Shown here: positions 1,266 to 13,148 of the stretch, one piece after another
How the letters are laid out: the number at the start of each line of letters is the position of its first letter
Numbering within the stretch: position 1 is the stretch's first letter
Assembly (NCBI GenBank): GCA_019241525.1
Contig: JAFAWY010000123.1
Location: 1-35,444 of the forward strand
Direction: 5' to 3'
From: Pseudonocardiales bacterium
GTDB taxonomy: Bacteria; Actinomycetota; Actinomycetes; Mycobacteriales; Pseudonocardiaceae
DNA length: 35,444 nt
Notes under the pieces: generated by a model
What the model saw: the letters and a program-made list of their open reading frames with translations, nothing else
What the model was told of the DNA's origin: nothing
The model's database searches: none
Program-made: the position numbers and the translations under genes

Positions 1266-1990
1266 GGCAGCCCTCCCTTTTTGGGGTGTCCAGCGAACAT
1301 ACCGTCGCACGGCTCCGGATGATCGATTTTGTGATTCGTCGTTCGCGTGGGCCAGACATCGTGTCCTGTGAATGGCGTAGAGGCCATTGTGCCACGCTGC
1401 TACGCCAAAGAATGGTCCATGGCACCTGTGAAGCTGTGCTCGAGCTGCTGTTATCCCACGATGACCCCCAGCGTCATAGTAAGAATGATACTTAAGGCTG
1501 TTCGGAAGCAACGGTCGTGTATCGGGGTGACATGGACTCCGGCTAAATTGATGGTCGAAATGGCGCAATCGGCACAGGGCGCATTGTCCCGCAGTAAGGC
1601 GACCCCATGGCTCGTTGCTGGGTTTTTAGTTTTCCGGCAATCCAGTGTTCATCATGAACTTGACAGTCTGAATTCATAATCTCCTGACATGGTTGAACCG
1701 GTTCTTGCTCGAAGCTTGCCTGCTGGGAGATTTTACCAAAAATTCTGGCACGGAAAGTGCTGAAACGCTCACTTAAAGCAGTCCGCATTAGCCTAATCGG
1801 ATGGCGTTCGGGCTGTTCTGTTACATCGATTTACAAGGGCCGATGTACAGCGCGCACTGGCACCACCACCCAAGCATTTCTGATCGATGAGATCGCCTGA
1901 CGAGATTTCGTGATCAGCGGTGCAACTGAGCCCTATGGGTCATCCGCTGCGCGCCAACCGCGGTCACAGGATCAGACTATGGAGGTCTTC
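1266..1990. other. Gene-poor gap between lipase and Gly-rich gene
   Basis: About 725 bases without a credible gene. Open frames occur on both strands but none has a ribosome binding site or recognisable domain. The only structure seen is an inverted repeat at 1818-1850 and a looser CTGATC/GATCAG pair at 1880-1917. The stretch must hold the promoters of the divergent lipase gene and the Gly-rich gene, but no clear -35/-10 pair stood out. Confidence 0.5.
1818..1850. repeat. Inverted repeat upstream of the Gly-rich gene
   Basis: CTGT-T-ACATCG at 1818-1828 pairs with CGATGTACAG at 1841-1850: ten pairs with one bulged T and a 12-base loop. It lies about 140 bases before the start of the secreted Gly-rich gene. 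It could be an operator for a dimeric repressor or an RNA hairpin; no regulator gene is adjacent. Confidence 0.5.
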
Positions 1991-2437
1991 ATGAATCACA
2001 GCATCAAGCGGCGGCTGGGCGTTTTGCTTTCCTCTGGCATCCTGGCTACTGGCTTGCTCCTGGCAGCTGAGGGAACTGCCTTTGCTTCCGGCAATGGCGG
2101 CGCCGGTGGCGCCGGCGGTGCGGGTGGTCAGGGCGGTAGCTCTTTTTTTGGTAACGGTGGCAATGGCGGTAATGGTGGCAATGGCGGGGCTGGTGGCAAT
2201 GGTGGTAGCAGTTGGTTTCCTGGTAACGGCTGCGGCGGCATTTCCTGCAACGGTGGTTGCGGCATTTTTTGTAACCATCCAGTCGGTGTTGGCGGATGTC
2301 CTCCTGTAGTGCTCTGGTGTGGCACATCGGCTCGTTTGAATCTCGCCAAGTTGTTGGGCTGCCCGGTGTTTTCCGAGCAGCTTCTGAAAACACTTTTTAA
2401 TCATGTTCCGGCTTGCCCAGCCAGGTGCGTAAAGTAG
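1991..2437 (+). CDS. Secreted glycine-rich, cysteine-rich small protein
   Basis: The product is 148 aa from the ATG at 1991, which has a strong GGAGG seven bases upstream; the open frame extends upstream but that part lacks a better site. Residues 1-32 form a Sec signal peptide: basic NHSIKRR, a hydrophobic core, and a TAFA cleavage site. Mature residues about 33-75 are Gly-Gly-Ala and Gly-Asn-Gly-Gly repeats that resemble the PGRS region of mycobacterial PE_PGRS proteins, but there is no PE domain. The remaining part carries nine cysteines and ends in a short helix-like segment with LNLAKLLG and SEQLLKTLFNH. Nine is odd, so at least one Cys would stay free or pair between chains. Function is unknown; a cell-surface or secreted structural or interaction protein is an inference. 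It is monocistronic by context. Confidence 0.75.
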   Translation: MNHSIKRRLGVLLSSGILATGLLLAAEGTAFASGNGGAGGAGGAGGQGGSSFFGNGGNGGNGGNGGAGGNGGSSWFPGNGCGGISCNGGCGIFCNHPVGVGGCPPVVLWCGTSARLNLAKLLGCPVFSEQLLKTLFNHVPACPARCVK

Positions 2438-3667: not shown

Positions 3668-3951
3668 AGATTCCCCAGAAGGTGCCGCCAACAAAGCGCG
3701 GTCGAGCATACGTGCTCGGAGGCTCAAAGTGGTGGAGCGCCGTGGCCTGTACTCCGTCGAGGAGTTGTTGCTGTTTGCGCGCTCAGGCCACCGTGCTGGG
3801 GGTAGGGCGCTCTCGCGAGAGAGGCCGTCGAGCGCCGTGACGTGGTCTGCGGAGACGGCCTTCATGGCAGTTGCATTCGACGAACCGCCGCCTTCGCATG
3901 GTGGCAAGCAAGTGTATGGTCCAGCGGTGGCAACCGCGCATACTCGCGGAC

Positions 3952-4634
3952 ATGTCTAAGCAATCAGCGTCGCTGGCGCCGGCGGAGGCATTGCGGGCTG
4001 CATACGAGGCCTTTAGCGCCATCGTTGCCACGATCGATGACGAGCGTTCGTGGCTGCCGACTGGCTGCATTGGCTGGTCGGTGCGTGACCTTATTTTCCA
4101 TTGTCTGTGCGACGCGCAGCGCGGCTTGGTGGCGCTTCACACACCGACTGACCGCGCTGCTGACCGGGACGCCGTCACGTACTGGCAAGACTGGCGGCCC
4201 GACGATGTCGGCGCAGCGAACGGCCGACGTTTTACCCGGGTGGTCGCGAGTATGTTCCTGCAAATCGATCAGCTTTGCCGACTGTACCTGGAGACAGCAA
4301 CAGCCGTAGTCAACGCTGCTAGTTGCGCCTTGGTCGACGGCCACGCGAGACGCAAGGCTATGTGCTGACCGTCGGCGACCTCATCCGCACCCTCACTGTC
4401 GAAGCAAGGATTCACGACCTCGACATGATCGTGCATCTGCCCGGAACCTCTGACCCCTCGAGCGAAGGGCTCGCGCAGGTGCGTTGGTGCCTCGATGGCT
4501 TGCTGGGCCGCCCGGCTCCGGCGTCATGGTCTGACGCGCACTGGGCGCGGATAGCCACCGGCCGGACACCGATGTCCCATGACGAGCGCGCACAATTAGG
4601 AGAAGACGCCGCCCGCGTTCCATTGTTTGGTTAG
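3952..4634 (+). pseudogene. Frameshifted mycothiol-dependent maleylpyruvate isomerase / DinB-like protein
   Basis: Two open frames join into one protein. The first runs from ATG 3952 (MSKQSASLAPAEALRAAYEA) through PTGCIGWSVRDLIFHCLCDAQ. The second continues from about 4340 with QGYVLTVGDLIRTLTVEARIHDLDMI to PLFG at 4634. Together they give about 225 aa, the normal length for this DinB-fold family, whose metal-site histidines correspond to the LIFH and ARIHDLD positions. Members use mycothiol or are hydrolase-like; the substrate here is unknown. The shift falls between about 4300 and 4355, where the first frame runs to a stop at 4368. The TTG at 4323 could start the second frame but would make only a C-terminal half. 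Either a true inactivating frameshift or a sequencing error explains it. Confidence 0.75.
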
Positions 4635-4930: not shown

Positions 4931-5295
4931 CGGCTATCACCCCTCAGGTCTGAATGTGCACATTTTCCAAGTTGTCGCTAAAAGCTATAGATATTACTGC
5001 ATAATCAATTCTAGCGCTCGCCGGGTGCGGTGGACCAACCTCGGTTGCAGGCACGTTGACCGGCGCCGATCAAGCCCGGTAGGACCGAGCAGATCTGAGC
5101 TGGTGATGCGAATCAACGGCGCGATGTCGGGACGTACCTTGCGGTGAGCTGCTGCGCCAGGATGGTGCCACTCCCGGGTTGGTTGAGCTACCGGCGCGGG
5201 GATGCTCGAGACCAGGCATCCTGGAACCGCTGGTGTCGTCTAACCGGCAAGGATCATCCAGCGCAGATCGCTCCCGTCCCGCGCAAGATGGGAGG
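4931..5295. other. AT-rich intergenic promoter region
   Basis: About 365 bases without a gene. Positions 4965-5015 are unusually AT-rich, with TATAGATAT and GCATAAT on the plus strand and a TTGATT on the minus strand. They could give divergent promoters for the orphan gene and the transporter. No pair has convincing spacing on both boxes, so I assign none. Confidence 0.4.
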
Positions 5296-6795
5296 ATGAG
5301 CTTTCGCGCGGAAGCCTCCTCAGTGGATCAGTCTGCGCACCCGAATCGTTGGCGCGCTTTGGCTGTCACCCAGCTGGCAGGCTTCATGAGCTTGCTCGAC
5401 GTCAGCATCGTCAACGTTGCGTTGCCGTCCATCCAGCACAGCCTGGGTACCTCGGTAGCGCAGGTGCAGTGGGTGGTGTCCGGTTACGCGCTCACTTTCG
5501 GGTTGGTGCTGGTAGCCGGCGGGCGATTGGGTGACGGCTTAGGCCGGCGCCGGATGTTCCTCCTGGCACTCACCGCTTTTGTGCTGACCAGCGCGTTGTG
5601 CGGAGCCGCCCCCAATGCCGAGTTGCTTGTCGCCGCTCGGCTGCTGCAGGGTTTGGCCGCGGGAATGCTCACCCCGCAGAATTCCGGTTTGATCCAGGTG
5701 CTGTTCCGCGGTGCCGAGCGCGGCAGAGCATTTGGCATTTTCGGTGCCACGGTCGGGCTTTCCACAGCGGTCGGCCCGGTGGTCGGCGGCTTCATCCTCA
5801 ACGTGGCGGGGGAGCAGGATGGCTGGCGGTGGATCTTCTACGTCAACGTTCCGATCGGGCTGGTCGCCCTGGTGGCAGCTTGGCGGCTGGTGCCGTCCCG
5901 ACCACGTAGCGGCACACGGGTCATCGCGGACATTGATGTGATTGGAGCGCTGCTGCTGGGATGCGGCGTGCTGTGCCTGTTGCTGCCCCTGGTGCAGGTC
6001 GACACCGGGGGCCTGCGCCGCCTGTGGTGGTTGTTCGTGTTGGCACCCGTGGTGACCGCGCTGTTTGTTCGCTGGGAGCAGCGGATGGTGCGGCGCAATC
6101 GCCCGCCTTTGCTCGACACCCGGCTGCTGTCCGCCACGCCGGGTTACTCGGCAGGAGCCGCGCTTGGGTTGGTGTATTTCGTGGGCTTCAGCGGGGTCTG
6201 GCTCGTGTTTGCGCTGTACTTCCAGCACGGATTGGGTTACACGCCGCTGCAGTCCGGCCTGGCGGTGACGCCGTTCGCCCTCGGTTCGGCGTTGTCAGCA
6301 GCGCTAGCCGGACGGTTGGTGACCAGGTACGGGCGCCGGCTGACCGTTGTCGGCCTCATCAGTGTCGCGGTGGGATTAGCTGGCACAGCGGCGGTGCTCT
6401 ATGTCGCACCCGCCGCCTGGGCTGGCTGGTGGGCAGCGTTGCCGTTGCTGGTGGGAGGTATCGGTGGCGGTGCTGTGATCTCTCCGAACATCACGTTGAC
6501 CTTGGAATGCGTGCCACCCGAAATGGGCGGGGCCGCGGCCGGAGCGCTGCAGACGGGTCAGCGAATCGGATCGGCCATCGGTACGGCCACGCTCGCGGCG
6601 GTGTTCTACGGGATGCTGGGGCACGGCAGCCACAATTACCGGGCGGCCATCGCGGCGGCATTGCTCACCGGAACCGGGTTTGTCTGCCTGGCTTTGCTGA
6701 TCGCGGTGTTAGAACTGCGGGTTCGCCAGCGTCGTGCGGCACTTCCCGCGCCGGACCAGGCCAGCGTTGCTGAGGCGGACGTGCATCGGACTTGA
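5296..6795 (+). CDS. DHA2-family (EmrB/QacA type) MFS efflux transporter
   Basis: The product is 499 aa from the ATG at 5296; the reading frame is open from 5179, and the GGAGG touching the ATG is closer than ideal, so the start is uncertain. It has the DHA2 signature SLLDVSIVNVALPSI (about 32-46), motif A GGRLGDGLGRRR (75-86), motif C GLSTAVGPVVGG (154-165) and WRWIFYVNVPIG (178-188). Hydrophobic segments fit about 14 membrane helices. Family members exchange drugs or metabolites for protons at the inner membrane; the substrate cannot be read here. It precedes the hydratase/CoA-transferase pair with a 56-base gap on the same strand, so it might export an acid linked to that pathway, which is inference. 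Confidence 0.85.
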   Translation: MSFRAEASSVDQSAHPNRWRALAVTQLAGFMSLLDVSIVNVALPSIQHSLGTSVAQVQWVVSGYALTFGLVLVAGGRLGDGLGRRRMFLLALTAFVLTSALCGAAPNAELLVAARLLQGLAAGMLTPQNSGLIQVLFRGAERGRAFGIFGATVGLSTAVGPVVGGFILNVAGEQDGWRWIFYVNVPIGLVALVAAWRLVPSRPRSGTRVIADIDVIGALLLGCGVLCLLLPLVQVDTGGLRRLWWLFVLAPVVTALFVRWEQRMVRRNRPPLLDTRLLSATPGYSAGAALGLVYFVGFSGVWLVFALYFQHGLGYTPLQSGLAVTPFALGSALSAALAGRLVTRYGRRLTVVGLISVAVGLAGTAAVLYVAPAAWAGWWAALPLLVGGIGGGAVISPNITLTLECVPPEMGGAAAGALQTGQRIGSAIGTATLAAVFYGMLGHGSHNYRAAIAAALLTGTGFVCLALLIAVLELRVRQRRAALPAPDQASVAEADVHRT

Positions 6796-6851: not shown

Positions 6852-7853
6852 ATGGCGCAGAACCGGGTACGGGTCGGCGGGCCGTATTTTGAGGACCTCG
6901 CGCACGGGCAGGTCTTCGCCGATGCACCGGGACTGACGTTGACGTCGGGCTACGCGGCATTGCATCAGTCGCTATCCGGCGATCGGCTGCGGCTACCGCT
7001 GGATCGCGAGTTGTCCGCGGCGGTCACCGGTCGTGCCGAGCCGTTGGCCCATCCCACGCTGGTCTGCCATGTCGCGATCGGCCAGAGCACTGCGCCCTCG
7101 CAGCGGGTCCGCGGCAATTTATTCTACCGCGGGCTGCGACTGCTGCGGCCGGTGCACCTGGGTGACACATTGCGCGCCCGCACGGAGGTCGTTGCATTGC
7201 GGCAGAACCGCCCGAAACCCGGACGGCCGCCCACCGGTCTCGCCGTGCTCCGCGTGCGGGTCAGCAACCAGCTGGATGAACCCGTGCTGGATTACTGGCG
7301 CTGCCCGATGATCCCGTTGCGCGATCCCGCAGCCAACACCGGTCACGCTGACAGCTTCGACCACATCCCCACTGATGCTGAGCCCGTCGATGACCTGCCG
7401 TGGGGTTGGCGACTCAGTGCCTTCCGGCCCACCGAAGTCCAACCCGGCACCATCTACGACATCGAGGTTCGCGATACCGTGACCGGCGCGCCAGAACTGG
7501 CCAGAGCCACCCTGAACCTCGCGGCCACGCACACCGACCCCGCCGCGTCCGCGTACGGGCGCCGCCTGGTCTACGGCGGACATACCATTTCCATTGCCGG
7601 AGCGCATGCCACCCGGGCTTTGCCCGACCTGGTGACGATCGTGGCATGGCGCAGCTGCGATCACATCGGCCCGGTGTTCGAGGGTGACGTGTTACGCACC
7701 GAACTGCATGTCGAAGCGGTCCATGTCCGGGATGGTTACCAGCTCATCGACCTACGGGCGCTGGTGCATGGCTGCCCCGCGGCTGACGCCGGCGATCTGA
7801 CCGTGGTGGACAAGCCAGTGTTGGACTGGCGATTCGTCGCGCTGGCTCGGTAG
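6852..7853 (+). CDS. Double hot-dog MaoC hydratase, mesaconyl-CoA hydratase-like
   Basis: The product is 333 aa from the ATG at 6852; an in-frame TTG at 6792 overlaps the transporter stop and is less likely because homologues begin close to the GxYFED motif seen at 10-15. It has two hot-dog halves: residues 10-155 with LRQNR and QLDEPVLDYWR, and 185-330 with THTD (His227, Asp229) followed by GRRLVYGGH. That matches the hydratase-2 active site. From memory, the VALRQN, NQ-DE-VLDY and R-VYGGH-IS blocks match Chloroflexus mesaconyl-C1-CoA hydratase (Mch), which interconverts mesaconyl-CoA and methylmalyl-CoA. A mesaconyl-C4-CoA hydratase (citramalyl-CoA forming) is equally possible. It is 11 bases before a mesaconyl-CoA transferase-like gene, which strongly supports a C5 dicarboxyl-CoA substrate. 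Confidence 0.78.
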   Translation: MAQNRVRVGGPYFEDLAHGQVFADAPGLTLTSGYAALHQSLSGDRLRLPLDRELSAAVTGRAEPLAHPTLVCHVAIGQSTAPSQRVRGNLFYRGLRLLRPVHLGDTLRARTEVVALRQNRPKPGRPPTGLAVLRVRVSNQLDEPVLDYWRCPMIPLRDPAANTGHADSFDHIPTDAEPVDDLPWGWRLSAFRPTEVQPGTIYDIEVRDTVTGAPELARATLNLAATHTDPAASAYGRRLVYGGHTISIAGAHATRALPDLVTIVAWRSCDHIGPVFEGDVLRTELHVEAVHVRDGYQLIDLRALVHGCPAADAGDLTVVDKPVLDWRFVALAR

Positions 7854-7864
7854 GGAGGCGTGCA

Positions 7865-9088
7865 ATGGCCGGAATCCTGGCAGGTATGCGCGTGGTGGAG
7901 GGCTCGGCGTTCGTGGCGGCGCCGTTGGGTGGGATGACCCTTGCTCAACTCGGTGCCGATGTCATCCGCTTTGATCCGATCGGCGGCGGGCTCGACGCCC
8001 ACCGCTGGCCGGTCACCGCGGAGGGGAAGAGCCTGTTCTGGGCTGGTTTGAACAAGGGCAAGCGTTCGATCGCAGTCGACATGCGATCGCCGCAAGGCCG
8101 GCAACTGCTCGTCGACCTGATCACTTCGCCGGGTGATGACGCGGGGCTGTTTTTGACTAACTTTCCAGCTGCGGGCTGGTTGAACTACCCCGCCTTGGCG
8201 TCCCGGCGCCCTGATTTGATCATGATGAACATCGTGGGCAACCCGGACGGATCCTCTGCCGTCGACTACACGATCAACCCCGCCACCGGCTTCGCTTGGA
8301 CCACAGGACCGGATGCCCTTGCGACCCCGGTCAACCACCTGCTGCCAGCTTGGGACGTCGTCACCGGCACCTTGGCCGCCACCGGCCTGCTGGCCGCCGA
8401 ACGTAAGCGGCGGATCACCGGGACCGGCCAGTTCATCCGGCTTGCCCTCGCCGATGTGGCCATGGCCACCGTCGGCCATCTCGGCTACCTCGCCGAAGTA
8501 CAGATCAACAACACTGAACGGCCCCGGTATGGCAACTACCTGTATGGCGCATTTGGGTGTGACTTCCCCACCAAGGATGGCAAGCGGGTCATGGTCGTCG
8601 GGCTGACACCGCGGCAGTGGCGCAGCCTGGTGACGGCCGTCGGGATCGGTGACGCCTGCGCTCAGATCGAGAAACTACTCAGCGTTGACCTGTCCAAGGA
8701 GGGTGATCGTTTTGCCGCGCGCCATCTGATCGCCGCCCTCATCGAGCCCTGGGTTGGTAACCGGACACTGCGTGAAGTCGGCGAGATTTTCGATACACAT
8801 GACGTGTGCTGGGGGCCATACCAGACATTCGCGGAACTCGTTGCCAACGATCCCCGCTGCTCACCCGCCAACCCCATGTTCGCCAACGTCGAGCAGCCGG
8901 AAATAGGGACCTACCTCACGCCTGGCTCGCCGATCGAATTCTCCGCCGACGACCGGATCCCGCCTGCGCCCGCACCCCGACTCGGCCAGCACACCGATGA
9001 GGTTCTTGGTCAGATTCTCGGCTTGTCAGCTGCAGAAATTGGTCGGCTCCATGACGATGGTGTCGTCGCCGACGCCATCGCTGGCTAA
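7865..9088 (+). CDS. mct: Class III CoA-transferase, probable mesaconyl-CoA C1-C4 CoA transferase
   Basis: The product is 407 aa from an ATG with GGGAGG upstream. It is a CaiB/BaiF (formyl-CoA transferase type) enzyme. The opening block VVEGSAFVAAPLGG, then TLAQLGADVIRFDPIGGGLD, RWPVT, SLFWAGLNKGKRS and NPMFA-VEQP-IG-YL-PGSP closely match, from memory, the Chloroflexus mesaconyl-CoA C1-C4 CoA transferase. That enzyme moves CoA between the two carboxyls of mesaconate within one molecule in the 3-hydroxypropionate bicycle. The catalytic Asp of the superfamily aligns with Asp164 in PAWDVVTG. Its partner hydratase lies 11 bases upstream. A citramalyl-CoA or methylmalyl-CoA lyase, needed to complete either route, is not in the window. 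An intermolecular CoA-transferase role remains possible. Confidence 0.8.
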   Translation: MAGILAGMRVVEGSAFVAAPLGGMTLAQLGADVIRFDPIGGGLDAHRWPVTAEGKSLFWAGLNKGKRSIAVDMRSPQGRQLLVDLITSPGDDAGLFLTNFPAAGWLNYPALASRRPDLIMMNIVGNPDGSSAVDYTINPATGFAWTTGPDALATPVNHLLPAWDVVTGTLAATGLLAAERKRRITGTGQFIRLALADVAMATVGHLGYLAEVQINNTERPRYGNYLYGAFGCDFPTKDGKRVMVVGLTPRQWRSLVTAVGIGDACAQIEKLLSVDLSKEGDRFAARHLIAALIEPWVGNRTLREVGEIFDTHDVCWGPYQTFAELVANDPRCSPANPMFANVEQPEIGTYLTPGSPIEFSADDRIPPAPAPRLGQHTDEVLGQILGLSAAEIGRLHDDGVVADAIAG

Positions 9089-9555: not shown

Positions 9556-10611
9556 TCACGCGGGTGGGTTCACACAGCTGGGCTGGAGAATCGCCTGCAC
9601 GTGAGGGTCGTTGATGTTGTCCTTGGTGACGAAGGCAACGCCGGTGTCCTCGCTCGATGCCACCTGGCCGGTGCGTACTGTCTGCATCATCGCGTTGACT
9701 GAGTCGAAGCCCATCCGGAACGGGTTCTGCACAATCAGCGCGGTGATTGCTCCTGACGTGACTCCCTTGACCTCGTCCGGTGACGCATCCCAGCCGATCA
9801 GTTTTACCTTCCCAGCCTTTCCCGCTTGGTTCAGCGCGTTGGTGGCGCCAACCACTCCGGGCTCATTCGCCGCGAAAATCCCGTCCAGGTTGGGGTTGGC
9901 GGTCAGGATGTTCTCGGTGACCGACAGTGCGGTGTTGGGGTCGCTGCTGCTGGATTGCTCGGCCACCAACGTCAGGTTCGGGTGCTTTGCAAGTCCCTCC
10001 TTGAATCCTTTGGTGCGTTGGTCGTTGGTCACTGTTCCGGGCTGAAACGGGATGAAGGCGACTTTGTGCGCGCCTGGCCCCAGCGCATCGGCGAGCAGGT
10101 CAGCCGCCTTTCGGGCGGCCGCGATGTTGTCCGTGGCGAAAACCGGCACGTTACTCGGTTGAGGGTTCGTTCCAGAATCAATATTGATCACTGGCACATC
10201 CCGGCTCAGTGCATCCTGGGTGACTTGGGCGAGCACCTTCGCGTCAGTGGCCGCATACACCAGCCCATCAACCTGCCGGGTCAAGAAGTTCTGCAGCAGA
10301 TTGACTTGGCCGGTGACGTCGGTCTCCGCGGTGACGCCGTCCCACTGAAGTTTCACATCAGTCATCTTCGACGCCGCACACTGGGCGCCCTTGCGGACGC
10401 TGTCCCAGAAGTCGAAGCCGACGGCCTTGGGCACAACGGCAACGGTGATGGGGCCGCTGGACTTGACTTTCGGGCCCCCAGAAGGGCCCGAACCGGGGAC
10501 GGTAACCGCGGAACAAGCCGCGGCGAGCACGATTGCAGCAGTACAACCCACGGACACCGACAACCTGACCCGCATGGCGCTCGCCTTTCTGATTCTCATG
10601 AGATTGGTCAT
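9556..10611 (-). CDS. Sugar ABC transporter substrate-binding lipoprotein
   Basis: The product is 351 aa from an ATG at 10611 with GGAGA upstream. A basic start (MTNLMRIRK), a hydrophobic core and the lipobox LAAAC (Cys33) mark a lipoprotein anchored on the outer face of the membrane. The mature part has the type I periplasmic-binding fold of ribose-type proteins: ITVAVVPKAVGFDFWDSVRKG, then VDGLVYAATDAK, VPVINIDSG, DQRTKGFKEGL, NLDGIFAANEPGVVGA and VKLIGWDASPDEV. It should capture a sugar or polyol and deliver it to the permease encoded 22 bases upstream. The ligand cannot be deduced. It is the third gene of the importer operon. Confidence 0.88.
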   Translation of the reverse strand: MTNLMRIRKASAMRVRLSVSVGCTAAIVLAAACSAVTVPGSGPSGGPKVKSSGPITVAVVPKAVGFDFWDSVRKGAQCAASKMTDVKLQWDGVTAETDVTGQVNLLQNFLTRQVDGLVYAATDAKVLAQVTQDALSRDVPVINIDSGTNPQPSNVPVFATDNIAAARKAADLLADALGPGAHKVAFIPFQPGTVTNDQRTKGFKEGLAKHPNLTLVAEQSSSSDPNTALSVTENILTANPNLDGIFAANEPGVVGATNALNQAGKAGKVKLIGWDASPDEVKGVTSGAITALIVQNPFRMGFDSVNAMMQTVRTGQVASSEDTGVAFVTKDNINDPHVQAILQPSCVNPPA

Positions 10612-10633
10612 GGCATCTCCGATCAAGGCCCAA

Positions 10634-11623
10634 TCATCGCGCTGCCGCCCGTCGCCGCCGGTACTGATCCCAGAACACGGCAATCCAGATAATTATCCCG
10701 ATGATGATCTGCTGATAAAAAGTATTGATATCCAGGAGCACAGACCCGTTGCGAATCAATGCAATTAACAGGGCACCCAGCAGGGTTCCGACGACCGTGC
10801 CTTCACCGCCGAAAAGACTGGCGCCGCCAATCACGGTAGCGGCGATGACATCGAGCTCGAGGCCGATGCCAAAGTTCGGTTGTCCGGAGTTGACTCGGGA
10901 TGCGGCAATCATCCCTGCCAGACCCGCCATGGTGCCGGAAATAATGTAGACGATCGCGAGGTAACGTTTGACGGGAACGCCGGACAGCCGGGCAGCTTCC
11001 ACGTTCGAACCTATGGCGTACGCGTACCGCCCGAGTTTGGTGCGGGTCAGAATGAGGTGCCCGAGCACCGCGACGAGGACGAGAGTCAAAACGGGGATCG
11101 GCAGCGCGCCGAGCCTTCCTTGGCCAAGCACCTTGAACTCCGGAGGCGTACCGGAAACGGCGACGGAACCAGTGACGATGTACACGAGCCCGCGGGCCAC
11201 ACTGAGCATGCCGAGCGTTGCGATGAACGGTGCCATTCCTGCCTGGGTCACGAGCAAGCCGTTGACCATGCCGGCAACAGCTCCGATTGCCGTGCCACCG
11301 ATGATGGCCAGGGGAATCGCAACGCCGTAGTTCACCACCAGAAGTGCGCCAAGCACACCCGATAACGCGGCCACCGAGCCGACGGACAGATCGATCCCGG
11401 CAGTGATGATCACGATGGTCATGCCGATCGCAATGATCGCCACCACCGCTGACTGGACCCCAATATTGATCAAGTTGTTCGCAGTGATGAAGGCGTCGGA
11501 CGCCAACGATAGGTAGATGAAGAGCACCAATACGGTGCCGGCTGCCGCGAGCTGCGACACCACGGAACGGGCCCGGTGGCGCCACGTACCGGGCGACGGA
11601 ACGCGGCGCCCTTGCCATCCCAC
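10634..11623 (-). CDS. Sugar ABC transporter permease (RbsC type)
   Basis: The product is 329 aa. The GTG at 11623 is chosen because GGGAGG sits seven bases upstream and it follows the ATPase stop by 16 bases; a longer frame back to 11758 would overlap the ATPase gene and has no hydrophobic content. About eight to ten membrane helices are visible. Family marks include NLINIGVQSAVVAIIAIGMT, IITAGIDLSVGSVAAL, NGLLVTQAGMAPFIATLGML, YAIGSNVEAARLSGV and IGGASLFGGEGTVVG. As in the ribose/xylose/inositol family, it would form a homodimer channel driven by the tandem ATPase. Confidence 0.88.
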   Translation of the reverse strand: MGWQGRRVPSPGTWRHRARSVVSQLAAAGTVLVLFIYLSLASDAFITANNLINIGVQSAVVAIIAIGMTIVIITAGIDLSVGSVAALSGVLGALLVVNYGVAIPLAIIGGTAIGAVAGMVNGLLVTQAGMAPFIATLGMLSVARGLVYIVTGSVAVSGTPPEFKVLGQGRLGALPIPVLTLVLVAVLGHLILTRTKLGRYAYAIGSNVEAARLSGVPVKRYLAIVYIISGTMAGLAGMIAASRVNSGQPNFGIGLELDVIAATVIGGASLFGGEGTVVGTLLGALLIALIRNGSVLLDINTFYQQIIIGIIIWIAVFWDQYRRRRAAAR

Positions 11624-11639
11624 GTTTCGCCTCCCGATG

Positions 11640-13148
11640 TCAGCGCTGGAATCCCTTGCCGGTACCGGTAGCCAACTGCATGATCCGTTCTTCGGAGAAC
11701 TCGTCACGAGCCAGCTCACCGGCGATCCGTCCGGCTCGTAAGACCAGGATTCGATCACACATGTTCAGTAGCTCCGGGAGGTAGGAGCTGATGATGACAA
11801 TCCCGCAACCCTGCGCGGCCAGCCGCCCGATCAGATCGAAGATCTCGGCTTTGGCGGCCACGTCGATGCCGCGCGCCGGCTCGTCGAAGAAGAGCACCTG
11901 GCTACGGGCTTCCAGCCACTTTGCCACCACGATCTTCTGCTGGTTGCCGCCGGACAGCGTGCGGACCCGGCTTTTTATCGAGGGCGCCTTGATGCCCAGT
12001 TGGTTTCCCCACGACTGCGCGATCTTTCGCTCGGCCGGCAAGTCGATCATACGAAGGCGAAGTGGAATGTTCGCCAGGGTGATGTTCTGATCCACTGGTA
12101 GGGCCATGGCGAGACCCTCGGCCTGGCGGTCCTCTGTCAGGTAGCCGAGCCCGGCCGCGATGCCCTGCCGTGCCGAGCGCAGGTTTACCTTGCGGCCGCG
12201 CACACTGACGCGTCCGGCGTCGGGGATGTCGGCACCGAAGATGGCTCGAGCTAGCTCTGTACGGCCAGCTCCGACCAGACCGGCGAACCCGACGATCTCG
12301 CCGGACCGTACGTCGACACTGCAGTCCACGAGATCGACCACCTTGCCTCGCCGGCAGATGCCGTCCGCGCTGAGCAGGATGTCTCCGACCTCGACGTCCG
12401 GTTTGGGGTAGAGGTCGCCGATATCGCGCCCGACCATCAGCCGGATCAGGTGTTGCGGTGACGCCTCCGCGGCCGGCAGCGTCTGAACGACCCTGCCATC
12501 GCGCAGCACGGTGACCCGGTCGGCGAGGTGAGCGACCTCGTCGAGGCGATGCGAGATATACACGATGGTGATGCCGCACCCCTTCAGCTCCGCGATCACC
12601 GTGAACAGATCATCGATCTCTGCCTCGGTGAGCATCGTGGTCGGTTCGTCCATGATCACCACTCGCGGATTCCCGTTGAGTGCCTTCGCGATCTCGACAC
12701 GCTGGCGGTCGGCGATCGGGAGGGTGCCCACCGCCCGGGCCGGGTCGACTGTGAGGTTCACCCGGGCCAGCAGCGACCTGGCGCGCCTGCGGTCGGCTCG
12801 GCGCGACAGCACTCCCCACCGGCTCGATTCGTCGCCGAGGCACAGATTTTCCGCTACGGACAGGTGCGCAGCCAGCGCGAGCTCCTGGTGCACCATCGAC
12901 ACGCCCAGCACTAGCTGGGCGAAGCGTGGTCCGCGAAAGGCGACCGGCTTGCCGTCCACGCGAATCACACCCTCGTCCGGTCGCTCGACCTGTGCCAGCA
13001 GCTTCATCAGGGTGGATTTGCCAGCGCCGTTCTCACCGACGACGACGTGGACCTCGCCTGGCAGTACGGTCAAGCTGACCTGGTCGACGGCGAGCACCCC
13101 TGGGTAGCGCTTGGAAACCTCGTGCATCTCCAACAAGGGCTCGGCCAC
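11640..13148 (-). CDS. Sugar ABC transporter tandem ATPase (RbsA/XylG/MglA type)
   Basis: The product is 502 aa, starting at GTG 13148, with two ATPase halves in one chain. The first has Walker A GENGAGKST (about 39-47), a signature region LPIADRQRVEIAKAL and Walker B VVIMDEPT. The second has the degenerate P-loop GLVGAGRTEL typical of this family, the canonical LSGGNQQK and FFDEPARGIDV. It hydrolyses ATP to drive uptake through the permease encoded next. It is the first gene of a three-gene minus-strand operon, transcribed away from the PASTA gene. The shared intergenic region (13149-13384) carries repeated GACGATCA half-sites that could control it. No sugar kinase or regulator is present to reveal the substrate. 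Confidence 0.88.
   Translation of the reverse strand: MAEPLLEMHEVSKRYPGVLAVDQVSLTVLPGEVHVVVGENGAGKSTLMKLLAQVERPDEGVIRVDGKPVAFRGPRFAQLVLGVSMVHQELALAAHLSVAENLCLGDESSRWGVLSRRADRRRARSLLARVNLTVDPARAVGTLPIADRQRVEIAKALNGNPRVVIMDEPTTMLTEAEIDDLFTVIAELKGCGITIVYISHRLDEVAHLADRVTVLRDGRVVQTLPAAEASPQHLIRLMVGRDIGDLYPKPDVEVGDILLSADGICRRGKVVDLVDCSVDVRSGEIVGFAGLVGAGRTELARAIFGADIPDAGRVSVRGRKVNLRSARQGIAAGLGYLTEDRQAEGLAMALPVDQNITLANIPLRLRMIDLPAERKIAQSWGNQLGIKAPSIKSRVRTLSGGNQQKIVVAKWLEARSQVLFFDEPARGIDVAAKAEIFDLIGRLAAQGCGIVIISSYLPELLNMCDRILVLRAGRIAGELARDEFSEERIMQLATGTGKGFQR

What the first reader, a model, noticed from the sequence alone, without database searches (positions are those of the whole stretch)
6852..9088. 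Two-gene mesaconyl-CoA module next to an exporter in an actinobacterium
A MaoC hydratase with Mch-like blocks and a CaiB enzyme with long near-matches to mesaconyl-CoA C1-C4 CoA transferase sit 11 bases apart. This pair is best known from the Chloroflexus 3-hydroxypropionate bicycle. Here it could serve mesaconate, itaconate, citramalate, propionate or glyoxylate assimilation. The upstream DHA2 transporter may belong to the unit.
Basis: partly seen in the sequence, partly recalled or inferred. Interest (0 to 1): 0.7.

Follow-up and report, generated by a model that had tools for sequence, protein, structure and literature searches.

The report
Mesaconyl-CoA isomerase paired with Rv0216-type hydratase
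An uncultured, probably soil-dwelling actinobacterium carries two neighbouring genes that very probably rearrange and hydrate the metabolite mesaconyl-CoA; the hydratase belongs to the same family as Rv0216, a tuberculosis protein of unknown function, so the pair suggests what that family does.

Summary
The pair is real: a MaoC hydratase (6852-7853) and a CaiB/Frc enzyme (7865-9088), 11 bases apart, under purifying selection. The CaiB enzyme is 65% identical to C. aurantiacus mesaconyl-CoA C1-C4 transferase (Mct), falls in the core Mct clade and keeps the catalytic and most 'cork' residues. The hydratase is not Chloroflexus-type Mch (31%); it belongs to the Rv0216 family, whose nearest solved folds after Rv0216 are the two mesaconyl-CoA hydratases. 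In 32 of the 80 best Mct loci, titled from several phyla, an Rv0216-type gene lies directly upstream; none of the 32 shows canonical Mcl/Mch or C4-hydratase (Meh) nearby, and no Meh was detected in 35 genomes searched (11 of the genus, 24 others). The window's genome has crotonyl-CoA carboxylase/reductase, an Ecm-like mutase, no detectable isocitrate lyase, and one malyl/beta-methylmalyl-CoA-type lyase in a serine-cycle-like operon. Best reading: an ethylmalonyl-CoA-pathway accessory module; the Rv0216-type enzyme hydrates mesaconyl-CoA (perhaps both isomers) and Mct swaps C1/C4. Gene content speaks against a 3-hydroxypropionate bicycle; the exporter is not a conserved part. Activities are inferred, not assayed.

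The parts
6852..7853 (+). Rv0216-family double-hotdog MaoC hydratase, 333 aa, proposed mesaconyl-CoA (C1 and perhaps C4) hydratase
   Evidence: Best PDB sequence match Rv0216 2bi0 E 1e-92, then mesaconyl-CoA hydratases 4e3e, 8hgn; AF2 model pLDDT 85.9, Foldseek TMq 0.88 Rv0216, 0.84 4e3e, 0.82 8hgn, next 0.64; 7 of 8 malate-contact residues of M. extorquens MeaC kept (residues)
7854..7864 (+). 11-base spacer beginning with Shine-Dalgarno-like GGAGG, consistent with co-transcription
   Evidence: G007 has GGAGG in its spacer too
7865..9088 (+). Mct-type family III CoA transferase, 407 aa, proposed mesaconyl-CoA C1:C4 intramolecular CoA transferase
   Evidence: TIGR04253 606 bits (cut-off 725, not reached); 65% to C. 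aurantiacus Mct; in the core Mct clade, split from the 50% group with support 100; R47, Y136, D165, L43, F101, R75 equivalents kept, R104 and R314' not
5293..6795 (+). DHA2/EmrB-type MFS exporter, a neighbour only, not a conserved part of the unit
   Evidence: EmrB model 234 bits, cut-off 230; directly upstream of MaoC in 2 of 9 genomes, present but separated in 2, absent within 4 kb in 5

Best explanation
The pair is a mesaconyl-CoA module attached to an ethylmalonyl-CoA (EMC) pathway in an uncultured Pseudonocardiales bacterium in whose genome no isocitrate lyase was detected. Ccr, a mutase and a dehydrogenase make mesaconyl-C1-CoA from acetyl-CoA (Ccr found, mutase found by similarity, dehydrogenase not searched). 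The Rv0216-type hydratase converts mesaconyl-C1-CoA to beta-methylmalyl-CoA, which the genome's single malyl/beta-methylmalyl-CoA-type lyase splits into glyoxylate and propionyl-CoA. Mct moves CoA from C1 to C4 through an aspartyl anhydride (mechanism as published for C. aurantiacus). The same hydratase (inferred, for lack of another candidate) then turns mesaconyl-C4-CoA into citramalyl-CoA, which the lyase may split into pyruvate and acetyl-CoA. The net effect is interconversion of the glyoxylate + propionyl-CoA and pyruvate + acetyl-CoA pools. Shown here: gene identities by similarity, linkage, phylogeny, residues, gene presence and non-detection. Inferred: all activities and fluxes. My confidence that the pair acts on mesaconyl-CoA or a very close C4/C5-dicarboxylyl-CoA is about 0.75; the figure given is for this full version with a dual-specific hydratase.
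For: Mct placement and residues. Hydratase fold nearest Rv0216 and then the two mesaconyl-CoA hydratases, with a drop to TMq 0.64 for the next, pocket residues kept. 32 of the 80 best Mct loci have an Rv0216-type gene immediately upstream on the same strand; 0 of 32 show canonical Mcl/Mch (within 4 kb) or Meh (within 7 kb), as far as their contigs reach; 8 of 32 have a CitE-like lyase within 3.5 kb. Meh not detected (E <= 1e-10) in 35 of 35 genomes (11 of the genus, 24 of the 28 other type-B loci) but found in 4 of 4 Mct-Meh genomes. The Meh query itself matches itaconyl-CoA hydratase PaIch at E 1e-66, an enzyme type reported to hydrate mesaconyl-C4-CoA. In the window's genome the pair's hydratase is the only match to canonical Mch at E <= 1e-6. 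Ccr over cut-off 11 of 11 in the genus, Ecm-like mutase 11 of 11, isocitrate lyase 0 of 11 at E <= 1e-40, one lyase at E <= 1e-15 in the window's genome, best PDB match malyl/beta-methylmalyl-CoA lyase 5ugr, E 1e-129, in an operon with malate-CoA ligase beta. Precedent: Haloarcula Mch acts on both isomers, kcat/Km 6.9 and 2.0 per s per mM; R. sphaeroides Mcl also makes citramalyl-CoA.
Against: No activity is stated for any Rv0216-family member in what I saw. The pocket residues also occur in other MaoC proteins: Accumulibacter paralogues LSNRNHYG, single-domain MaoC LSNR, ASNR, ITNR. Two type-B genomes (G307, G318) carry a further double-hotdog MaoC with FSNRNHFG/FSNRNHYG, so there the Rv0216-type enzyme is not the only candidate. 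G006 and G010 of the genus have Ccr and the mutase but no detected MaoC-Mct pair; both are incomplete MAGs (87%, 90%). 12 of 24 type-B genomes lack Ccr over cut-off. In a genus holding Rv0216's closest relatives, the 32 genomes with an Rv0216-type gene also have a Mct-like gene, but not next to it, and the four of these examined are only 49-51% identical to Chloroploca Mct. TIGR04253 cut-off not reached. NCBIfam's best model for the mutase is methylmalonyl-CoA mutase, below cut-off (552 versus 876), so 'Ecm' rests on similarity to an Accumulibacter mutase that I labelled by its gene neighbours. Methylsuccinyl-CoA dehydrogenase was not searched.
Confidence: 0.45

Rival explanations
1. The hydratase acts only on mesaconyl-C1-CoA (it is the EMC-pathway Mch of this lineage); Mct feeds or drains a C4 branch whose hydratase is some unrelated enzyme not detected here.
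For: Fold nearest to C1-type hydratases rather than to PaIch (TMq 0.84/0.82 versus 0.50); an EMC pathway with a serine-cycle-like operon needs a C1 hydratase and no other Mch-like candidate was detected in the window's genome.
Against: Leaves Mct without a detected partner on the C4 side in the 33 pair-carrying genomes among the 35 searched for Meh; the tight pairing with Mct is then harder to explain.
Confidence: 0.25
2. The hydratase acts on mesaconyl-C4-CoA and replaces Meh. Mct plus hydratase plus lyase send mesaconyl-C1-CoA to pyruvate and acetyl-CoA, short-circuiting the EMC pathway so that acetyl-CoA plus CO2 gives pyruvate.
For: No overlap of Rv0216-type partner and Meh next to Mct, 0 of 80 loci with both; type-C genomes pair Mct with Meh instead; CitE/RipC-like lyases next to the pair in other lineages.
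Against: Fold and pocket resemble C1-type Mch; the window's lyase is closest to malyl/beta-methylmalyl-CoA lyase; glyoxylate regeneration would then lack a detected hydratase.
Confidence: 0.2
3. The pair handles another dicarboxylyl-CoA (for example methylsuccinate-, itaconate- or lipid-derived) in catabolism.
For: An intramolecular CoA transferase for another substrate is described (ThnP; start of abstract of PMC11659651 seen in a listing); Rv0216-type genes elsewhere in the order lie by acyl-CoA dehydrogenase-like genes.
Against: Window Mct keeps L43 and F101 besides R47, Y136, D165; the 50% group keeps only the last three.
Confidence: 0.09
4. Part of a 3-hydroxypropionate bicycle like that of Chloroflexus.
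For: Mct is a bicycle enzyme.
Against: No Meh detected in the genome; no Smt, canonical Mcl or Mch beside the pair; Ccr and an Ecm-like mutase present instead.
Confidence: 0.01

Closest known systems
[quoted passage not shown]
   Same: 65% identity over the aligned length; catalytic Asp, Arg47, Tyr136 and cork residues Leu43, Phe101, Arg75 kept
   Different: Arg104 is Ala and Arg314' is Asp; partner gene is an Rv0216-type hydratase instead of the smt-mct-mcl-mch order; 606 bits on TIGR04253, while Chloroploca Mct scores 788 (cut-off 725)
Rv0216 of Mycobacterium tuberculosis, 2bi0
   Same: Same family and double-hotdog fold, 52% identity in the structural alignment; same N/H pair and R, N, Y, G contacts (S79 position is Thr)
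   Different: Falls in the sister clade of the family; its close relatives in one genus are not next to Mct
Mesaconyl-C1-CoA hydratase (Mch/MeaC), 4e3e and 8hgn
   Same: Double-hotdog fold (TMq 0.84 and 0.82); 7 of 8 substrate-pocket contacts
   Different: About 31% identity to Chloroploca Mch, separated by a long branch with support 100; Phe71 is Ile
Mesaconyl-C4-CoA hydratase (Meh) and itaconyl-CoA hydratase (Ich)
   Same: Proposed shared reaction on mesaconyl-C4-CoA
   Different: No significant sequence similarity to Chloroploca Meh; weak RipB/Ich model match 38.8 bits, cut-off 340; TMq 0.50 to PaIch

Membership tests
Mct / 2-methylfumaryl-CoA isomerase | Curated NCBIfam equivalog cut-off (TIGR04253, 725 bits) | tested here: not met
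   606 bits; 0 of 11 genomes of the genus reach it
Mct / 2-methylfumaryl-CoA isomerase | Phylogenetic placement with characterised Mct | tested here: met
   ML tree of 98 sequences: the core clade holding C. aurantiacus Mct and the window is split from the 50% group with support 100; within it the window lies in its own subclade (100), joined to the main canonical-operon clade with support 70
Mct / 2-methylfumaryl-CoA isomerase | Catalytic Asp165 with Arg47 and Tyr136 (residues from PMC9813914) | tested here: met
   Present in the window and in every Mct or Mct-like row, so not a discriminating test
Mct / 2-methylfumaryl-CoA isomerase | Cork residues at the tunnel mouth (F101, R75, R104, L43) | tested here: inconclusive
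   F101, R75, L43 kept, R104 is Ala; R104 is kept in only 13 of 23 Mct with a canonical Mch gene nearby
Mct / 2-methylfumaryl-CoA isomerase | Intramolecular C1-C4 CoA transfer | not testable with these tools
   needs an assay
Canonical mesaconyl-C1-CoA hydratase (Mch) | Pfam MC_hydratase (PF19315) above gathering score | tested here: met
   38.8 bits versus 26.5, but only residues 7-176 matched; Chloroploca Mch matches over 7-321
Canonical mesaconyl-C1-CoA hydratase (Mch) | Placement in the canonical Mch clade | tested here: not met
   Outside, long branch, support 100; 31% identity
Canonical mesaconyl-C1-CoA hydratase (Mch) | Substrate pocket residues F71 S79 N85 R142 N226 H231 Y248 G249 of MeaC | tested here: inconclusive
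   I S N R N H Y G, 7 of 8 identical; not unique to Mch
Rv0216 family | Sequence, fold and tree placement with 2bi0 | tested here: met
   E 1e-92, TMq 0.88, tree
3-hydroxypropionate bicycle module | Meh, Mcl, Smt with Mct | tested here: not met
   Meh not detected in 11 of 11 genomes of the genus; no Smt, canonical Mcl or Mch match around the pair in the window or in 8 other genomes of the genus
3-hydroxypropionate bicycle module | Malonyl-CoA reductase, propionyl-CoA synthase | not tested
Ethylmalonyl-CoA pathway | Crotonyl-CoA carboxylase/reductase | tested here: met
   621 bits, cut-off 378.55
Ethylmalonyl-CoA pathway | Ethylmalonyl-CoA mutase | tested here: inconclusive
   Mutase 95% to that of G007, which lies about 6.5 kb from ccr and is 67% to an Accumulibacter mutase I labelled Ecm from its neighbours; NCBIfam has it below the methylmalonyl-CoA mutase cut-off
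Ethylmalonyl-CoA pathway | Methylsuccinyl-CoA dehydrogenase | not tested
   not searched in the whole genome

The most novel reading that the evidence does not exclude
The Rv0216 family is a second, independent lineage of mesaconyl-CoA hydratases that accepts both C1 and C4 esters. Together with Mct and one lyase it forms a three-protein module that links the ethylmalonyl-CoA pathway directly to pyruvate: acetyl-CoA + CO2 to pyruvate, without glyoxylate shunt, Meh or canonical Mch. It would be widespread in uncultured bacteria.
Probability: 0.3. Interest if true: 0.78.

Novelty: new variant of a known kind. Interest (0 to 1): 0.58.

Why it matters
Rv0216 has had a released structure since 2005; [quoted passage not shown] Its family's recurrent pairing with Mct, together with a shared fold, suggests a concrete, assayable substrate. 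The pair also widens Mct from a disjunct list in print (Chloroflexi, several Gammaproteobacteria, an alphaproteobacterial symbiont, Accumulibacter; PMC6593406 passages) to Actinobacteria and others. It points to a possible acetyl-CoA assimilation branch that annotation by canonical Mch/Meh models would miss.

Tried and rejected
Rejected: a 3-hydroxypropionate bicycle. Rejected: DHA2 as a conserved member of the unit. Rejected as proof on its own: the pocket residues, because control MaoC proteins share some or all of them. Treated with caution: co-occurrence of Rv0216-type and Mct-like genes in the order sample, 46 and 65 of 248 genomes, 40 with both (Fisher 1e-22). This is inflated by one genus (32 genomes with both). 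Without those 32, 14 and 33 of 216, 8 with both, p 2e-4; by genus, 12 and 19 of 63, 8 with both in one genome, p 0.004. Related genomes are not independent in any of these. Led nowhere: promoter/terminator scan (0 promoter-like, 6 terminator-like sites versus 3.8 expected). The Rv0216 structure paper is not held. In the listings and passages I saw, none described the Rv0216-Mct pairing (searches; PMC papers under open licences only, so this is weak). For papers I saw search listings, abstract beginnings and passages, and parts 1 and 3 of 5 of PMC9813914; none was read whole.

Labels: Meh, Smt, Mcl and Mch of the Chloroploca locus L067 and Ecm, Mcd, MeaB of the Accumulibacter locus L085 are names I gave from recalled gene order and similarity. 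Checked afterwards: Mch best PDB 4e3e, E 8.5e-185, then 8hgn; Meh best PDB itaconyl-CoA hydratase 8huc/8khg, E 1e-66, no Pfam or NCBIfam model; Mct 788 bits, over the TIGR04253 cut-off; Smt, Mcl, Ecm and Mcd reach no specific model's cut-off.

Rows dropped: four short-contig type-B loci (L058, L061, L062, L091) and the four loci of the genus already held under G handles (L049-L052) were not given. L049-L052 and L037 (the window-like contig in G007) were dropped from the Mct tree; those plus L061 and L091 from the MaoC tree. Most MaoC sequences in that tree were found through Mct, so the tree over-represents linked ones.
Full report
Observation. Its nearest named loci carry MAG titles such as Pseudonocardiales bacterium and Actinobacteria bacterium; soil origin is my inference from isolate names. 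Nine of 11 genomes of the genus carry the pair, upstream of the MBL-uvrA block. G006 and G010 show neither gene and are 87% and 90% complete. G007 holds a second copy on a small contig whose two pair proteins are 100% and 99.75% identical to the window's, most simply contamination of that MAG by the window's species. Selection is purifying (dN/dS 0.11 and 0.12 against G007).

The transferase. P0002 matches the C. aurantiacus Mct structure 8apq at E 8.6e-177 and is 65% identical. It scores 606 bits on TIGR04253, below the cut-off of 725, so by NCBI's rule it would not be named an equivalog. In a tree of 98 sequences it lies in the core clade that includes C. aurantiacus and Accumulibacter Mct, split from a 50%-identity group common in the order with support 100. 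Within the core it sits in its own subclade (support 100), joined to the main canonical-operon clade with support 70. The only other outgroup was one Smt-type sequence. Residues described by Pfister and colleagues (PMC9813914, parts 1 and 3 seen) and in the Roseiflexus paper (PMC9196870, passages) were tabulated. Asp165, Arg47 and Tyr136 are present in every Mct and Mct-like row. Leu43 and Phe101 of the cork are kept in the window but absent in the 50% group. Arg104 (Ala here) and Arg314' (Asp here) differ. Among the 23 Mct with a canonical Mch gene nearby, only 13 keep Arg104 and 18 keep Arg314', so these are weak markers.

The hydratase. By sequence the window MaoC is nearest to Rv0216 (2bi0, E 1e-92), then to the two mesaconyl-CoA hydratases 4e3e and 8hgn. 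An AF2 model (pLDDT 85.9) gives the same order by fold: TMq 0.88, 0.84 and 0.82, then a drop to 0.64. It is 31% identical to Chloroploca Mch and has no significant similarity to Chloroploca Meh. Of the eight residues that contact malate in M. extorquens MeaC (PMC10164722, passages), seven are identical and Phe71 is Ile. Every complete Rv0216-type row but one reads ISNRNHYG or ITNRNHYG (L101 has Asn at the first position); Rv0216 itself reads ITNRNHYG and canonical Mch FSNRNHYG. As controls, paralogues in Accumulibacter operons with a mutase and an acyl-CoA dehydrogenase read LSNRNHYG. Single-domain or half-length MaoC read LSNR, ASNR, ITNR or FSHR, while others read FSFR, IAER, YSEA or ATDT. 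The set therefore marks part of the superfamily, not one enzyme. Two type-B genomes (G307, G318) have an additional double-hotdog MaoC reading FSNRNHFG or FSNRNHYG.

Linkage. Classified by neighbours, 32 have an Rv0216-type gene directly upstream on the same strand (gaps 6-223 bases between matches). 24 have canonical Mcl and/or Mch (20 of these also Meh), 7 have Meh only, and 17 have none of these, some on short contigs. No locus mixes the Rv0216-type partner with canonical Mcl/Mch or Meh, though several of the 32 contigs end close to the pair. The 32 carry titles such as Actinobacteria, Pseudonocardiales, Solirubrobacterales, Thermoleophilia, Acidimicrobiia, Chloroflexi, Proteobacteria and Deltaproteobacteria. 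Eight of the 32 have a CitE-like lyase within 3.5 kb. Six such lyases were scanned, five from type-B loci and one from L247; their best model is citE or RipC/Ccl, all below cut-off. In the order sample an Rv0216-type gene also adjoins or lies within 5 kb of a more distant Mct-like gene (43-46% to Chloroploca Mct) in G508, G507, G445, G338 and G388. The hydratase tree has two main clades. The window's clade (support 99) contains only Mct-linked sequences. The second (support 94) holds Rv0216 and its close relatives among mostly Mct-linked sequences. Because most tips were found through Mct, this hints, but does not show, that the link is older than the unlinked state.

Genome content. Meh was not detected (E <= 1e-10) in 11 of 11 genomes of the genus or in 24 of 24 other type-B genomes given (24 of 28 such loci), but was found in 4 of 4 Mct-Meh genomes. 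The query, a Chloroploca protein I call Meh by recalled gene order, matches itaconyl-CoA hydratase PaIch at E 1e-66. Full-length canonical Mch at 68% or more was found only in G321, G322, G326 and G327 of the 42 genomes searched; in the window's genome the sole match at E <= 1e-6 is the window gene itself. Ccr passes its cut-off in 11 of 11 of the genus and 12 of 24 type-B genomes. A mutase at 62% or more to the G007 Ecm-like enzyme is in 11 of 11 and 13 of 24; the Ecm name rests on similarity and context, since the best NCBIfam model is methylmalonyl-CoA mutase, below cut-off. Isocitrate lyase at E <= 1e-40 is in 0 of 11 and 1 of 24. A CitE-like lyase at E <= 1e-15 is in 11 of 11 and 23 of 24. 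The window genome's only one is closest to the malyl/beta-methylmalyl-CoA lyase 5ugr (E 1e-129). It lies in an operon with a class V aminotransferase (best model BhcA, 561 bits, cut-off 650), malate-CoA ligase beta (668 bits, cut-off 604), an alpha subunit and a glyoxylate reductase-like gene. I read this as a serine-cycle-like set; it is also seen, whole or in part, in other genomes of the genus.

Mechanism. These facts fit an EMC pathway whose mesaconyl-CoA hydratase is the window's Rv0216-type enzyme, with Mct giving access to the C4 ester. That one MaoC can serve both esters has precedent: Haloarcula Mch has kcat/Km 6.9 on C1 and 2.0 on C4 (PMC5592240, passages), and Ich hydrates mesaconyl-C4-CoA besides isomerising itaconyl-CoA (PMC12290011, passages). 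R. sphaeroides Mcl also forms citramalyl-CoA (PMC3832036, passages). Phe71 packs on the malate carbon backbone in MeaC; its change to Ile could make room for the shifted methyl group (inference). Results against: the pair is not detected in two incomplete genomes that have Ccr and the mutase, half of the type-B genomes lack Ccr over cut-off, two have another candidate hydratase, and no enzyme was assayed.

Verdict. The transferase is a likely functional Mct in a new context, although it misses the curated cut-off. The hydratase belongs to a family of unknown function and is tied by context, fold and pocket to mesaconyl-CoA. New variant of a known kind; a good test case for the Rv0216 family.

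Noticed in passing
window 9556-13148 (-): Three-gene ribose/allose-type sugar ABC transporter lies between Mct and the PASTA/MBL/uvrA block. Among nine fetched loci of the genus its binding-protein gene was seen only in the two of G007 (L036 and the window-like contig L037); it looks like an insertion in these two species.
   Followed up: partly
window 3871-4368 (+): Short ORF matching positions 1-80 of the 140-position MDMPI_N model, then stops in that frame; looks truncated or broken.
   Followed up: partly
window 1910-2437 (+): Glycine/asparagine-rich, signal-peptide-like ORF (GGNGG repeats), with an open antisense frame.
   Followed up: no
L171 4983-10488 (G000:C135): Serine-cycle-like operon (aminotransferase, malyl-CoA lyase type, malate-CoA ligase beta and alpha, glyoxylate/hydroxypyruvate reductase) in an actinobacterial genus, seen whole or in part also in L147-L149, L151, L152, L176 and L204.
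   Followed up: partly
L037 (G007:C356): Small contig whose pair proteins and DHA2 are 99.75-100% identical to the window's, in a genome whose own copies are 90-93% identical: probable MAG contamination.
   Followed up: no
genus g52 (32 handles between G333 and G525): All 32 sampled genomes with an Rv0216-type gene in this genus also carry a Mct-like gene elsewhere (49-51% to Chloroploca Mct in the four examined); other members of that 50% group lack the L43 and F101 cork residues. A possible unlinked functional partner.
   Followed up: partly
L085 710-8166 (Accumulibacter regalis): EMC-like gene set with mutase, a second type of double-hotdog MaoC (about 29% to Mch, same pocket residues), acyl-CoA dehydrogenase and a 494-aa lyase-like protein: a further candidate mesaconyl-CoA hydratase lineage.
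   Followed up: partly
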